This document shows positions 973-6,659 of a stretch of 6,659 bases of DNA, piece by piece. The stretch comes from an uncultured Erysipelotrichaceae bacterium (GTDB lineage: Bacteria; Bacillota_I; Bacilli_A; RF39; UBA660), in the NCBI GenBank assembly GCA_902783345.1, contig CACZQI010000063.1, positions 1-6,659 of the forward strand, written 5' to 3'. Every line of letters begins with the position of its first letter. Position 1 is the first letter of the stretch. The notes beneath the pieces are model-generated. The model did no database searches. It worked only from the letters and a program-made list of their open reading frames with translations, and was not told the DNA's origin. Position numbers and translations under genes: made by a program.

Positions 973-2055
973 ATGAATCATGTCTATGTTCATATTCCTT
1001 TTTGTAAAAGCATTTGCTCTTATTGTGATTTTTGTAAAATGTTTTATGATAAAGAAGTTGCTTTAAATTATTTAAATGCTTTAAAAGAAGAAATAAACGA
1101 ATATTATGAAGATGAAATTATTGATACTTTATATATTGGTGGGGGAACACCATCAAGTTTAGATTATGATTTATTAGATAAATTATTTGACATCTTAAAA
1201 GTATTTAAACTAAGTGAAAAATGCGAATTTACTTTTGAATGTAATCCAGATGATTTAAACGAATACTTTGTTAAAAAAATTGCATCTTTTGGGGTAAATA
1301 GAGTAAGTATTGGAATAGAGTCTTTTCATAAAGATAAGTTAAAATTTATGGAAAGGACATCTAATTTTGATGATATTAAAACTAAAATGAATTTACTTAG
1401 ATATTATGGAATTAATAATATTAATATTGATTTAATGTACGCTATTCCTAATGAAACATTAGATATTTTAAAAAAGGATGTTAAAATGTTTTTAAAACTA
1501 AATCCTACACATATTAGTACTTATTCTTTAATTATAGAAGATCATACAAAAATTAAAATTAATAATGCGCAAAATATTAATGAAGATTTAGAAGCAAAAA
1601 TGTATGAATATATTTGTAAAAAGTTAGCATCAAAAGGTTATATTCATTATGAAGTGTCTAATTTTGCTTTAAAAGGATATGAATCAAAACATAATTTAGC
1701 TTATTGGAATAATGAAGAATATTTTGGTTTTGGTCTTGGAGCATCTGGTTATATTAATGGTTTTAGATATGATAATACTCGTAATATAAGTGAATATGAA
1801 AATGGCAAATATCATGCTACTGAAGCACTTTTATCTAAAAAAGAATTAATGGAATATGAACTTATGCTTGGTTTTAGGAAAATGGAAGGAATAAGCTTGC
1901 AAAGTTTCTTTGATAAATATGGCGTTAATATGCAAGAGGTTTTTCCTATAAAACCACTTGTTCATAATAAAGATTTAATATATAAAAATGGTTTTATTTA
2001 TATTAATCCTGAAAAAATATATATTATGAATGAAATCTTAAACAAAATGATATAA
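973..2055 (+). CDS. hemW: HemW-like radical SAM protein (putative heme chaperone; often misnamed oxygen-independent coproporphyrinogen oxidase)
   Basis: HemW proteins bind a [4Fe-4S] cluster, SAM and heme, and are thought to deliver heme to membrane targets. The 360 residues are slightly short of the common 370-400. The cluster motif CxxxCxxCxC is at Cys11, 15, 18 and 21, preceded by YVHIPF. GGGTPS is at 56-61, and the HemW signature HNxxYW is at 240-245. A HemN_C-like C-terminal domain runs from about 290 (ELMEYELMLGFRKMEGI, ending NEIL). Departures from the usual pattern are GIES instead of GVQS (Glu116), MERTS instead of LGRxH (Ser130), and GASGY instead of GAHxY (Ser258). The nearest start-site signal is AGGTG at 963-967, 5 nt before the ATG. 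A lepA-hemW neighbourhood supports HemW over true HemN; cytoplasmic. Whether this host makes heme cannot be told here. Confidence 0.9.
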   Translation: MNHVYVHIPFCKSICSYCDFCKMFYDKEVALNYLNALKEEINEYYEDEIIDTLYIGGGTPSSLDYDLLDKLFDILKVFKLSEKCEFTFECNPDDLNEYFVKKIASFGVNRVSIGIESFHKDKLKFMERTSNFDDIKTKMNLLRYYGINNINIDLMYAIPNETLDILKKDVKMFLKLNPTHISTYSLIIEDHTKIKINNAQNINEDLEAKMYEYICKKLASKGYIHYEVSNFALKGYESKHNLAYWNNEEYFGFGLGASGYINGFRYDNTRNISEYENGKYHATEALLSKKELMEYELMLGFRKMEGISLQSFFDKYGVNMQEVFPIKPLVHNKDLIYKNGFIYINPEKIYIMNEILNKMI

Positions 2056-2060
2056 TTAAA

Positions 2061-2093
2061 TAGACTTGAAAAAATATATAATTATGATAAAAT
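2061..2093 (+). promoter_or_regulatory. Probable sigma-A-type promoter for the surface protein gene at 2122
   Basis: TTGAAA at 2066-2071 is followed after 16 nt by TAAAAT (2088-2093). An overlapping alternative is TAGACT (2061-2066), 16 nt, TATGAT (2083-2088). Either resembles TTGACA/TATAAT and leaves about 30 bases to the ATG, with the ribosome-binding site between. No terminator hairpin is visible after hemW, so some read-through from the housekeeping cluster is also possible. This is a sequence-only call in AT-rich DNA. Confidence 0.5.
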
Positions 2094-2121
2094 TATTTAT
2101 AGTAAAAGAGGTTGTTAATTA

Positions 2122-3504
2122 ATGAAATTTAAATATTTATTTACAGGATTATTATTAAATATAGTATTAATTGTAAATGTAAGCGCTGCAACATTAGAAA
2201 TTAAAGCTAAAGAAAAAGCTGTTATTAATAATGCTGATTCTGCAGTTATTTTAGTTAATATTAAAGATGTTGGGGAAGAAGAAATTAATCAAGTAGAATT
2301 TGATTTAGCTTATAATAAAGATTTATTATCTGTAAAACCATTAGAAAATGAATTTGGTTATTCGCAAAATATTAATAAAGATAATATTTTTATTAATAAA
2401 GCAAAGAAAAATTTTACTGATGGGTCAATTATATCTTTTAATGTAACTAATTTAAATAAAGATGAAATTGATATGAAAGAAGATTTTTCAATTACTAATG
2501 TTAAAATAAATGATACTGCTTTATCTGAAGAAGAAGCAGCTAAAATTATGCCACTATCTTTAACGTTAAAAAAACAAATAACTACTACCACTAGGGCTTT
2601 AAATACTAGTGCGGAGCTTAAAACATTTAAAGTAAATTATGGTACCATTAAACCAGCATTTTCTAAAGACGTTAAAGAATATAAAATATATATTGATAAA
2701 GATACTATTAGACAAGTGACTATAACGCCAGAATTTGAACAAACTGGTGTTCAGATGGAAGTAGAATGTACTTTAGGTTGTTCTTCAGCTAATCCTTTAA
2801 ATAAGCTTAATTTAACTCAAGGTAAAAATGAAGCAACTTTTACATTTACTTCTGAAGATGGTAAAAATAAAAATGAATATAAATTTATAATATATCGTGG
2901 ACCAACAACTGATGGCTCAAATTTACTTTCTAGTTTAGCATTTGAAGAAGATGTTAAAATTAATGAAAAATTTGATAAATCTAATTTAGATTATACGGCT
3001 ACAGTGCCTTTTGAAACTGAAAAGTTAACAGTTGTGGCAACTCCAGAGGATGCTAATGCTGATGTTAGTATTAAAGGAAATGACAAATTAGAAGTTGGCG
3101 AAAATGTAATAACTATTACTGTAACTAGCGCTGAAACAATGGAAAAGAAAATCTATAATATTACAGTTACTAAAGAAGAAGAGAAAAAAGAAGAGGAAAA
3201 TGCTACTGAAGTAGCGCCTATAATTGAAAAACAAGAGCCTCAAAAGAAAAATAATCTTAAATTAATTATTATAATTGGAGTGATAAGTACCTTAATAATT
3301 GCCTTATCAGCATATTTTATCTTCTTTTATAAGGGTAAGAAAAAACCTTCTAAAGTTGTAAAAGAAGATTTAGATAGTACTGTAACTACTAATAAAGCCT
3401 TTATTGATGAAGAAAAAGAACCAACAAGTGTTGATGATGCTTTAAAAGATTTAATGCAAACTAAAGAGATAAATAATGTAAATGATGAACCTACTGATTT
3501 TTAA
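2122..3504 (+). CDS. Secreted membrane-anchored protein with cohesin-like and two cadherin-like beta-sandwich domains
   Basis: The specific function is unknown; the layout is that of a cell-surface protein. Residues 1-23 form a signal peptide (MKFKYLF, a hydrophobic run, then VSAA). Residues about 24-150 look like a cohesin-type beta domain (QVEFDLAYNKDLLSV, then DGSIISFNVTNL, then ITNVKIND). A Thr-rich linker (ITTTTR, around 153-158) leads to two modules resembling the cadherin-like beta-sandwich family: 166-259 (GTIKPAFSKDVKEYKIYI) and 269-350 (NLDYTATVPFETEKLTVVAT, GENVITITVT). A charged linker, a helix at about 381-403 and a 57-residue cytoplasmic tail follow. There is no LPxTG sorting motif. 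Cys216 and Cys220 (CTLGC) could form a small loop in the first cadherin-like module. The start is supported by AAGAGG at 2106-2111, 10 nt upstream. The domain assignments are by eye and moderately sure. It could serve in adhesion or in scaffolding a surface complex, but nothing visible fixes a partner. Confidence 0.8.
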   Translation: MKFKYLFTGLLLNIVLIVNVSAATLEIKAKEKAVINNADSAVILVNIKDVGEEEINQVEFDLAYNKDLLSVKPLENEFGYSQNINKDNIFINKAKKNFTDGSIISFNVTNLNKDEIDMKEDFSITNVKINDTALSEEEAAKIMPLSLTLKKQITTTTRALNTSAELKTFKVNYGTIKPAFSKDVKEYKIYIDKDTIRQVTITPEFEQTGVQMEVECTLGCSSANPLNKLNLTQGKNEATFTFTSEDGKNKNEYKFIIYRGPTTDGSNLLSSLAFEEDVKINEKFDKSNLDYTATVPFETEKLTVVATPEDANADVSIKGNDKLEVGENVITITVTSAETMEKKIYNITVTKEEEKKEEENATEVAPIIEKQEPQKKNNLKLIIIIGVISTLIIALSAYFIFFYKGKKKPSKVVKEDLDSTVTTNKAFIDEEKEPTSVDDALKDLMQTKEINNVNDEPTDF

Positions 3505-3514
3505 GTAGGTTTTT
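3487..3514 (+). terminator. Rho-independent terminator overlapping the end of the preceding gene
   Basis: AACCTACT (3488-3495) pairs perfectly with AGTAGGTT (3504-3511) across an 8-nt loop, with a possible G-U pair extending the stem at 3487/3512. The stem runs into a T-rich tract (TTTTT at 3510-3514, then CTTT). The left arm encodes the last residues of the upstream protein and its TAA stop (3502-3504) bridges the loop and right arm. It separates the surface protein gene from the prepilin-like operon. Confidence 0.82.
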
Positions 3515-3515
3515 C

Positions 3516-3544
3516 TTTAATTTTAATTCATTTTGTTATATAAT
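3516..3544 (+). promoter_or_regulatory. Probable promoter of the prepilin-like gene pair
   Basis: TATAAT at 3539-3544 matches the sigma-A -10 consensus and lies 27 bases before the ATG at 3572. The -35 region is weak: TTTAAT at 3516-3521 with a 17-nt spacer. It sits directly after a terminator, where a new promoter is expected. The downstream ATGATAA echoes the other two promoter-like sites in the window. The ribosome-binding site is AGGAG at 3556-3560. Confidence 0.55.
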
Positions 3545-3571
3545 GATAAGAGAATAGGAGAGTAGCATAAT

Positions 3572-5308
3572 ATGAAGAATAATGGGTTTATTGCCACAAC
3601 ATTAATATATTCTTTCTTTTTAGTTTTTTGCGCTATCCTTCTTAGTTATATTGCTTTAAGCACATATAATAAAAATTTAATAGCTAAAGCCAATGAAAAT
3701 ATTCGCAAAGATATTAATGAAAAAACTATTGGTGATATTGAGTATGGTTCCTACTTTAAAATAGAAGTTAAAAATAAAAATGTTGAGTCTAAAGATATTA
3801 ATTGGATAGTTTTTAATAATAAAAATAATGGTGAAACTGAACTAGTTTCTTCTGGAATTGTTTTTAATAAATATATTTATAAAATGAAAGATTTTGCGGA
3901 AATAAAAAATGTTGTTGTTACCTATCATAATGAATGCTTATCAAGTAAAGTTAGGTTATTAACTAAAAGTGACATGTATAATGTTATGAAGCAAAATGCT
4001 AAAAATACTAGAGTTTTAAAAAACTTTTTAAATGTCGATAATGCCAATGAAAGCGTTAATTATTTATTATATAATAAATCTAATGGTTCTGAATATTGGT
4101 ATAATTATATATATAAAGAACCTACGGGGGATTTTTACTCATTATCTGAATTTCAAAATGTCGCCTTAAATAATAATGAGCCTACTACTTATAATCGAAT
4201 AAATCCAAGTACTGGTGATTATTACGATATTAATAGTTCAATTAATGTAAGATTAGTTATTACTCTGCCATCTGATATTAAAATAGTTGGTGGAAATGGT
4301 AGTTATTCAAATCCTTATGTTATTTCTACCGAAAATTGTTTTAGGGAATTATCTTTAATTAATAATATTTTAGCAAATGGTTATAATAATAAATCAAATT
4401 ATACTAATCCAGGTAAAGCCGTTGCTTTAGCTGATGAAGGAGTGCGCACTACTTTTGATGATTATGGAACTAGTTATTATTTTAGAGGAGATGTTAAAAA
4501 TAATTATTTAATATTCGCGGGTAAATGTTGGCGAATAGTAAGAATAACTGGAAATAACGCCATAAAAATAGTTTTACAAAATGATGATGGAATAGGATGC
4601 AGTGAATATACCACCGCTGGGTCAAGCAAATATAATGATGTTTCAGGATTATATAATACGTCAGCTGGAGTTGGCTATATGTATGGAAATAAAGCCTCTA
4701 ATAGTTATAGTGAAGCCCAAGCAAATACCTATGATAGTAGAGTATTATTATTTTTAAAAGATTGGTATGATAATTCTTTTACTGAAAGTCAAAGAAGTGA
4801 GTTTGCTGATGTAATTTGGTGTAATGATAAAAGAATATCTGGCTCATATAGCCTTAATAATTCGCTATTTATGGCAAAAATAAGAATAGATGGTGCTGGT
4901 AATAGTGCAAATATTGCTCCAAGTTTAGTTTGTTTTTCATCCGGGGATAGTAATTTATTATCAAGGTTTACAGCTAGTGATATAACAAATGGCAATGGCA
5001 AATTAAAAAGTGGTTTAAGAGAATATAAAATTGGTCTTCTAACAGCCGATGAAGTTGCATTTGCTGGTGGAGTATATAGTAGTAATAATAATAAATTTTA
5101 TTTATATGGTCATAGTAATAATGCCTCATCTTGGCTTTTGACACCATCATCTAGATATATGGTTTATACATTAGATGGATATAATGGCACTATTGGATTA
5201 AATACAGTTAATACTTCAGTTGGTATTCGTCCAGTTGTCGCACTTAGCCAAAATACAAAAATAGTTGCTGGTGATGGAAGCCTAGATAATCCATATGTGG
5301 TTGAATAA
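3572..5308 (+). CDS. Prepilin-like surface protein lacking Glu+5, with two tandem copies of a DUF6273-like module
   Basis: The function is unknown. The N-terminus (KNNG, then FIATTLIYSFF) resembles a class III prepilin leader: a short basic start, Gly5|Phe6, and a hydrophobic helix at 6-32. The +5 residue is Thr10 rather than Glu. A short polar helix (33-53) leads to two apparent copies of one module. Copy 1 (about 54-251) has GSYFKIEV, INWIVF, RLLTKSDM (128-135), then VRLVITL and GNGSYSNPYV (241-250). Copy 2 (about 300-578) has YYFRGDVKNNYLIFAG, CWRIVRITG, IWCNDK, IGLLTADEVAFAGG (487-500), WLLTP (521-525), then GIRPVVAL and GDGSLDNPYV. Copy 2 carries four cysteines (319, 343, 417, 454) conserved in the next gene. 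The likely location is the outer face of the membrane, perhaps at a pilus tip. A simple signal anchor without pilin processing is the main alternative. AGGAG at 3556-3560 supports the start. Confidence 0.82.
   Translation: MKNNGFIATTLIYSFFLVFCAILLSYIALSTYNKNLIAKANENIRKDINEKTIGDIEYGSYFKIEVKNKNVESKDINWIVFNNKNNGETELVSSGIVFNKYIYKMKDFAEIKNVVVTYHNECLSSKVRLLTKSDMYNVMKQNAKNTRVLKNFLNVDNANESVNYLLYNKSNGSEYWYNYIYKEPTGDFYSLSEFQNVALNNNEPTTYNRINPSTGDYYDINSSINVRLVITLPSDIKIVGGNGSYSNPYVISTENCFRELSLINNILANGYNNKSNYTNPGKAVALADEGVRTTFDDYGTSYYFRGDVKNNYLIFAGKCWRIVRITGNNAIKIVLQNDDGIGCSEYTTAGSSKYNDVSGLYNTSAGVGYMYGNKASNSYSEAQANTYDSRVLLFLKDWYDNSFTESQRSEFADVIWCNDKRISGSYSLNNSLFMAKIRIDGAGNSANIAPSLVCFSSGDSNLLSRFTASDITNGNGKLKSGLREYKIGLLTADEVAFAGGVYSSNNNKFYLYGHSNNASSWLLTPSSRYMVYTLDGYNGTIGLNTVNTSVGIRPVVALSQNTKIVAGDGSLDNPYVVE
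4457..4584 (+). repeat. Copy 1 of a 128-bp segment shared by the two prepilin-like genes
   Basis: This coding stretch aligns without gaps to 5993-6120 in the next gene, with 103 of 128 bases identical by my hand count. It encodes the start of the shared module (DDYG, then SYYFRG, then CWRIVR). Differences fall in both synonymous and replacement positions, so it is an older coding duplication and not a recent copy. Confidence 0.85.
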
Positions 5309-5313
5309 GGGGG
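5307..5313 (+). promoter_or_regulatory. G-rich ribosome-binding site at the junction of the prepilin-like genes
   Basis: AAGGGGG starts inside the TAA stop of the upstream gene and ends 4 nt before the ATG at 5318. It fixes the start of the second gene and indicates that both genes are translated from one mRNA. Confidence 0.7.
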
Positions 5314-5317
5314 TATT

Positions 5318-6659
5318 ATGAAAAAGAATATAAATAATAAAGGATTTGTCATGATTGAAACAATTATAGTAATGAGTATTTTAGCGATTGGTTTAATATC
5401 TTTATATGCTTCATATGCTCTTATTATGAAAAGGAATGCTAATAATACTAATGATAAAGCCGAAAATACATATATTGCATATCAAATTAACAATTATAAA
5501 TTTTATCAACCATCAAATATATTAGATAGTACTTATTATGTTGAAGTATACTCATTAGGAGGTAATTATTTAAAAAGAGATTGTGGGTTGGTTGGTTCTA
5601 CTGCTAAGTGTACCTCACAAATTATAATACCTAAAGAAGAACAAGCCTTATATCGAAATTTAAATATTGATAAAATATATTATTTTACAAGAAATTTATC
5701 AGAGCTTTTTAATAGTGATGCCTTACTTTTATTTGATGGTAGTACGATAAACTATTTAAACAAGCAAAAAAATAATATAAATGTTAGTAGTACAGCTGAG
5801 AGAACAGTTTTAGTTAAAACTAAATATGATAATGAAACAAATTTTTCTTATTATCAAAAAGAGTATAGTTATAATGCTAAAAATATTCGAAGACTAATTT
5901 ATGGTGAAGAAAATAAAAATGTATCAAATCCTATGACTAATCCAGGAGTAAATATATCTTCAAATAATGAAAAAATAATAGGAACAACTATTGATGATTA
6001 TGGAATAAGTTATTATTTTAGAGGTAATGTCCAAAACAATTATTTAGTATTTGCGGGAATGTGCTGGCGAATAGTTAGAGTAACTGGGAATGGTAATATA
6101 AAACTAGTTTTATATAATGAATCTAATGCATCATGTACTGAAACTGGTGAAAATAAAGCCTTTGCAAGATATAGCACTAATAATTTTAAAATAAGTTATA
6201 ATAGCAGTAATAATTATAATACTTATGTTGGTTATAAATATAGTAATAATACTAGTTCAAGTAATTATAATGATAATCATGCCAATAATATAGACAGTAA
6301 TATTTTAGCAAAATTAAAAATGTGGTACGATTCAAAAATTAGTGATCAGAATAAATTACTACTTGCGGATGTCATTTGGTGTAATGATAAAAGCGTAGTT
6401 AGTGATTTATCATATAATGTAAATAGTTTTAGTAATTTAACTGGAAGTGGGGTTAAAAATGAAGCAACATATTATAGTGCTTCTAGAAGACTTATGCCGA
6501 GCGCTAATGCTGGTCCAAGTTTAAATTGTACTAATAGTTTATCAAAATTAACATCAACAAATTTAAATGGTTATAAAATTGGTCTTTTAACTGCCGATGA
6601 AGTAGCATATGCCGGTGGTGCTTATAACGCATCTAATAATAATTATTATTTATATAATA
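5318..6659 (+). CDS. Prepilin-type protein with canonical class III leader and DUF6273-like module, 3' end outside window
   Basis: The frame is open from ATG 5318 to the window end: 447 codons plus one base, with no stop. The leader is a textbook prepilin site: basic MKKNINNK, Gly9|Phe10, Glu14 at +5, and a hydrophobic helix to about 37. Residues about 38-220 form a region I do not recognise, with a DCGLVGSTAKC cysteine pair that may be a disulfide loop. From about 226 comes the same module as in the upstream protein: SYYFRGNVQNNYLVFAG, CWRIVR, IWCNDK, and IGLLTADEVAYAGG at 421-434. Cysteines 249, 273, 355 and 404 match the neighbour's four. A loop at about 284-325 is very rich in Asn, Ser and Tyr. 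By comparison, about 65 residues are missing, including the WLLTP and GIRPVV segments. It is probably a minor pilin or pseudopilin with a large exposed domain, expressed together with the gene before it. Confidence 0.82.
   Translation, partial: MKKNINNKGFVMIETIIVMSILAIGLISLYASYALIMKRNANNTNDKAENTYIAYQINNYKFYQPSNILDSTYYVEVYSLGGNYLKRDCGLVGSTAKCTSQIIIPKEEQALYRNLNIDKIYYFTRNLSELFNSDALLLFDGSTINYLNKQKNNINVSSTAERTVLVKTKYDNETNFSYYQKEYSYNAKNIRRLIYGEENKNVSNPMTNPGVNISSNNEKIIGTTIDDYGISYYFRGNVQNNYLVFAGMCWRIVRVTGNGNIKLVLYNESNASCTETGENKAFARYSTNNFKISYNSSNNYNTYVGYKYSNNTSSSNYNDNHANNIDSNILAKLKMWYDSKISDQNKLLLADVIWCNDKSVVSDLSYNVNSFSNLTGSGVKNEATYYSASRRLMPSANAGPSLNCTNSLSKLTSTNLNGYKIGLLTADEVAYAGGAYNASNNNYYLYN
5993..6120 (+). 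repeat. Copy 2 of the 128-bp segment shared by the two prepilin-like genes
   Basis: This is the counterpart of 4457-4584, at about 80% identity without gaps by hand count. It marks the start of the shared C-terminal module and shows that the two genes arose by tandem duplication or by spread of this module. Confidence 0.85.

What the first reader, a model, noticed from the sequence alone, without database searches (positions are those of the whole stretch)
3572..6659. Two-gene operon of prepilin-like proteins carrying a shared large surface module
Adjacent genes with prepilin-like leaders share a long, well-conserved C-terminal module (YYFRG..., CWRIVR, IWCNDK, GLLTADEVA.AGG) that is not a classical pilin fold. 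They have their own promoter-like sequence after a terminator and a 9-nt gap between them. A reasonable inference is a pair of minor pilins or pseudopilins that present this module outside the cell, for adhesion or surface sensing. I know of no characterised function for such a pair.
Basis: partly seen in the sequence, partly recalled or inferred. Interest (0 to 1): 0.75.

Follow-up and report, generated by a model that had tools for sequence, protein, structure and literature searches.

The report
Lectin-tipped pilus protein pair
Two neighbouring genes, probably from an uncultured Mycoplasma-related bacterium, appear to encode pilus building blocks that each carry the same lectin-like head, whose relatives occur on phage tails and are in one case hypermutated by a retroelement.

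The parts
3572..5308 (+). ORF1: modular prepilin-like protein lacking Glu5 (578 aa)
3572..3724 (+). ORF1 leader (MKNNG|F) and predicted long N-terminal helix (residues 5-50)
   Evidence: G5 F6 I7 A8 invariant in 15 of 15 rows; AF2 helix 5-50; no pilin HMM hit
3725..4357 (+). ORF1 domain 1 (residues 52-262): C-type-lectin-like, probably a degenerate copy of the module
4358..5305 (+). ORF1 C-terminal DUF6273-like module (residues 263-578)
5126..5239 (+). ORF1 stretch equivalent to the DGR variable region of the G088 homologue (residues 519-556)
   Evidence: alignment A4; VR/TR
5318..6659 (+). ORF2: modular prepilin with Glu5, cut by the window end; C-terminus known from P0121
5318..5935 (+). ORF2 leader (MKKNINNKG|FVMIE), helix and alpha/beta stalk domain (residues 1-206)
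   Evidence: TIGR02532 above cut-off, ComGE model 4e-5 below cut-off; 17 of 17 rows of A2, the window's included, match the ComGE model at E<=0.1; AF2
5936..6659 (+). ORF2 C-terminal DUF6273-like module (residues 207-447+)
3487..3512 (+). terminator-like hairpin at the end of the upstream gene

Best explanation
ORF1 and ORF2 are two minor type IV pilins of the modular kind. Prepilin peptidase would cut after the glycine of each leader. The N-terminal helices would enter a type IV filament, most likely at or near its tip, with Glu5-less ORF1 in a position like that of GspK or PilA and ORF2 next to it. The grafted DUF6273-like heads (one on ORF2, a good one plus a degenerate one on ORF1) would stick out and bind a ligand, probably a host or mucus glycan or protein, through the variable face near the C-terminus. 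Shown by computation: leaders, shared module, fold match, second lectin-like domain in ORF1, conserved pairing, homologous heads in phage tail-region genes and as a DGR target. Inferred: processing, assembly, tip position, ligand type.
Confidence: 0.62

Rival explanations
1. Only ORF2 is a pilin; ORF1 is a signal-anchored surface protein with two lectin-like domains that happens to sit beside it.
For: No Glu5, no pilin model hit in 15 rows; the same module sits on many proteins that look signal-anchored rather than pilin-like (loose motif).
Against: Invariant G|FIA site after a short basic/polar leader and a predicted continuous 46-residue helix; conserved linkage with ORF2-type. The K subunit and S. 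sanguinis PilA also lack Glu5 (PMC9934059).
Confidence: 0.2
2. The pair belongs to a competence (Com-type) or type II-like pseudopilus; the heads capture DNA or secretion cargo rather than host ligands.
For: ORF2's best NCBIfam match is ComGE; Com pili are capped by four minor pilins including ComGE and ComGG (PMC12153270, passages read).
Against: Those passages describe no grafted heads on Com minor pilins; DUF6273-like relatives in phage tail regions and in a DGR fit varied ligands better than DNA.
Confidence: 0.15
3. The heads are a diversified receptor repertoire: a DGR or recombination elsewhere in the genome rewrites the pilin heads.
For: A module homologue is a DGR variable protein in G088; pilin-type P0014 and P0016 are nearly identical outside the modules but differ inside them; two phages 99.4% identical over 8.3 kb differ in the module.
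Against: No RT or template repeat in the window; ORF1 versus its 97% relative P0001 has only 2 of 20 changes in the equivalent stretch. P0014/P0016 and the L003 phage end may be assembly chimeras. No RT in the 3 phage records.
Confidence: 0.12

Closest known systems
Streptococcus sanguinis type IV pilins PilA/PilB/PilC (modular minor pilins)
   Same: Operon-encoded minor pilins, one without Glu5 (PilA), one with Glu5 and a large C-terminal lectin module (PilC) (PMC9934059, passages).
   Different: Here both partners carry the module, the module is DUF6273-like rather than concanavalin-A-like, and ORF1 has two lectin-like domains.
DUF6273 (PF19789) domain of Thomasclavelia ramosa IgA peptidase (PDB 9qa6)
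   Different: There it is fused to an M64 peptidase; the passage read calls it a domain of unknown function (PMC12402451); window sequences fall below Pfam's cut-off.
DUF6273 tentaclins and other DGR target proteins of gut phages
   Same: C-type-lectin-like domain with the DGR variable region on its surface and at its C-terminus (PMC10743442, PMC11792537, passages).
   Different: Phage-borne and not described as prepilins in those passages; no DGR seen in the window.
Bacteroides ovatus pilin tip with a C-type lectin domain (type V pili)
   Same: C-type lectin domain in a pilus tip protein (mentioned in PMC6199706, passage).
   Different: Different pilus class and assembly route (recalled); the original paper is not held.

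Membership tests
type IV pilin (class III signal peptide) | Short leader ending in G before a hydrophobic stretch | tested here: met
   ORF2 TIGR02532 above cut-off; ORF1 by invariant G-F-I-A in 15 of 15 rows, not by model
type IV pilin (class III signal peptide) | Glu at position 5 of the mature protein | tested here: inconclusive
   Met in ORF2 (E14); not met in ORF1 (T, S or A in 14 of 14 listed ORF1-types); some tip pilins lack it (PMC9934059)
type IV pilin (class III signal peptide) | Long N-terminal alpha helix of about 50 residues | tested here: met
   ORF1 helix 5-50; ORF2 model, made from the start-truncated P0121, helices 2-30 and 38-49 with a low-confidence break
type IV pilin (class III signal peptide) | Prepilin peptidase, ATPase and platform protein in the genome | not testable with these tools
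   No whole genome held; no Bacillota genome handle could be reached
modular pilins (PMC8179133) | Pilin part fused to a domain not specific to type IV filaments | tested here: met
   Same module on prepilins, on proteins without prepilin leader and in phage tail-region genes
DUF6273 (PF19789) | Score over Pfam's gathering cut-off | tested here: not met
   No hit for either window protein at E<=1; 3 of 9 relatives scanned (P0004, P0012, P0016) exceed the cut-off and 22 of 60 rows of A3 match at E<=0.01. Filed only as DUF6273-like
DUF6273 (PF19789) | Fold of the solved DUF6273 domain (9qa6) | tested here: met
DGR variable protein | Adenine-biased VR/TR pair and reverse transcriptase nearby | tested here: not met
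   None in the 6659-base window; met in homologue G088/L020. Sequence beyond the window not seen

The most novel reading that the evidence does not exclude
These bacteria carry a diversifying receptor system on their pili: several minor pilins of one filament share a lectin-fold head of the class that DGRs hypermutate, and the heads are swapped or rewritten between cells, giving a retractable pilus with changing target specificity.
Probability: 0.13. Interest if true: 0.85.

Novelty: new variant of a known kind. Interest (0 to 1): 0.55.

Why it matters
Linking it to a solved fold, to phage tail genes and to a DGR suggests a job, ligand recognition. On prepilins it would make type IV pili of uncultured Mycoplasma-related bacteria adaptable adhesins. 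Two related orders, RFN20 and ML615J-28, are reported to lack srtA/B sortases (PMC10868615, passages); whether the window's host belongs there is unknown, but in such cells pili could be a main route to display binding domains. The claims can be tested with recombinant heads.

Tried and rejected
Promoter claim: not above chance. DGR acting on the window genes: no template repeat, no reverse transcriptase, no excess change in the equivalent stretch between ORF1 and P0001. Module in phage or plasmid records by tblastn: no match at 1e-5 in either, though IMG/VR phages had it. ORF1 as single query and the ORF2-type alignment A2 in IMG/VR: no relatives confirmed. PDB sequence search with alignment A3: none at E<=0.1. 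Region search with ORF1 residues 1-262: 7 hits, all already known ORF1-types, so no case of leader plus domain 1 without the module was found. Host pilus machinery: could not be searched. Pfam DUF6273 in the Saccharibacteria genome G001 by the genome search: no match although tblastn found the module there, and no control genome rang. Structural search of ORF2's stalk: no pilin in the VIA list, which does not exclude one. TR sequences of the two G088 DGRs against another module gene of the same genome (L026): no match, so that gene is no target of these templates. Literature: the listings showed no title on DUF6273-type pilins; of the 5 papers holding 'DUF6273' I read passages of 3 and did not open PMC13432834 and PMC9145396. 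The dataset of 264 modular-pilin architectures (PMC8179133) was not looked at, since supplement look-ups were capped at 0; the architecture may be listed there.

Counts and their limits. The prepilin pattern gave 41 of 231; I dropped 4 (P0098, P0151, P0157, P0197) as signal-anchor types on reading them, leaving 37; P0121 is a 38th whose database start lies downstream of the leader. The 'SipW-like' class (149 of 231) rests on a loose motif that I recalled and which even caught P0121; only 1 of 9 proteins tested hit the SipW model, below cut-off, and camelysin matched 2 of 60. Contig sharing rests on equal longest-contig lengths, not on seen sequence. Row P0013 was left out of the domain-1 profile, and rows of A3 with 150 or fewer module residues were dropped (number not printed). 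VR/TR ends were set by a score that tolerates mismatches at template adenines; the plain 60-base windows gave 10 of 11, 7 of 7 and 2 of 2 mismatches at adenines.

Full report
What is there. The window reads lepA (3' end), tag, hemW, a membrane protein with cadherin-like domains (2122-3504), then ORF1 (3572-5308) and ORF2 (5318 to the window end) on one strand. G+C is about 25-27%. ORF1 and ORF2 share 43% identity over 258 residues in their C-terminal halves and are 9 nt apart. The scan finds a terminator-like hairpin at 3487-3512, but promoter-like sites are at chance level.

Who it belongs to. No whole genome is held. The only two listed relatives whose names carry an organism are 'MAG ... 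[bacterium]' and 'MAG ... [Tenericutes bacterium]' (P0181, P0216), so an uncultured Mycoplasma-related member of the Bacilli is likely (inference).

A conserved pair. Of 14 ORF1-type proteins, 9 share an exact longest-contig length with one of 18 ORF2-type proteins. Among 231 listed relatives, 37 have prepilin leaders by my pattern: 14 ORF1-type, 2 short ORF1-like, 17 ORF2-type and 4 others (after dropping 4 false calls); P0121 makes 38. The other 193 are mostly proteins that look signal-anchored, or fragments.

Homologues tell the likely use. In three IMG/VR contigs (L003/L013 and L012 near-identical phages, L014 another) the module ends a gene that lies, by eye, in the tail region; in L014 a CHAP-like gene follows (domain names recalled). 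L003 and L012 are 99.4% identical over 8296 bp but differ in the module, although L003's 3' end looks chimeric. None of the three records has a reverse transcriptase match. In the class of Saccharibacteria genome G001, 16 of 147 genomes match the ORF2-type profile at E<=0.001: 12 clearly over the module, 1 weakly at its C-terminal end, and 3 only over the leader; no row joins leader and module. Reverse transcriptases occur in 7 of these 12 genomes, in 6 over the family cut-off. In G088 one lies beside a module gene: L020 has a variable protein (31% identity to P0044 over 224 aa, E 2e-11), an Avd-like gene (NF033474 E 4.8e-7, 30 bits, below its cut-off of 80), an RT and a 125-bp VR/TR pair with 27 mismatches, 25 of them at template adenines. 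A second pair in G088 (L021) has 22 mismatches, 21 at adenines, and its VR translates to the module's C-terminal signature. A third adenine-biased pair (L022, 9 of 9) targets a protein that does not look like the module. In a plain scan of nine RT loci, three loci (two places, both in G088) were positive; L022 stayed under that scan's mismatch minimum; four control loci gave none. The VR aligns with ORF1 residues 519-556 and overlaps the most variable blocks of the module (P0121 residues 451-480, mean entropy 2.3-2.7 bits). In the window there is no template repeat, and only 2 of 20 ORF1/P0001 differences fall there: I claim recognition, not DGR action, for this pair.

Swapping among prepilins. 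P0014 and P0016 are 96-100% identical per 25-residue block over the first 250 residues and fall to 32-80% inside the modules, while the two copies within each protein are 99% identical. This fits cassette replacement with homogenisation, or an assembly artefact.

Mechanism and comparison. The closest precedent is S. [quoted passage not shown] modular pilins were counted at more than 1,200 proteins in 264 architectures (PMC8179133, passages). The present pair differs in module type, in both partners carrying it, and in ORF1's two heads. Pilus machinery, processing and ligand are unproven.

Noticed in passing
L020 (G088:C9:9500-16500), 1326-4859: DGR in a Saccharimonadia genome: module-bearing variable protein with (by eye) signal peptide and sortase-like C-terminus, Avd-like gene, RT, VR/TR with 25 of 27 mismatches at template adenines; a second DGR with a module-type VR in L021.
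   Followed up: partly
L020 574-1068, minus strand: A prepilin-like ORF (AFTVLELLLC...) lies next to the DGR variable-protein gene, in opposite orientation.
   Followed up: no
L003 and L012: Two phage contigs 99.4% identical over 8.3 kb diverge inside the module of a tail-region gene; L003's end may be a chimeric assembly.
   Followed up: partly
P0014 and P0016 (protein database): Prepilins nearly identical outside, but different inside, two modules that are 99% identical within each protein.
   Followed up: partly
L001 7628-9196, 9200-11143, 16281-17627: Saccharibacteria surface proteins with similar N-terminal anchor regions but different C-terminal parts (one DUF6273-like, two repeat-like by eye), suggesting module shuffling.
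   Followed up: no
window 2122-3504: Protein with two cadherin-like stretches (PF12733, E 2.2e-21) and, by eye, a signal peptide and a C-terminal transmembrane segment, upstream of the pair; role unknown.
   Followed up: no
P0121 versus window 5318: The database gene call for ORF2 starts downstream of the prepilin leader, which hides its pilin nature.
   Followed up: yes
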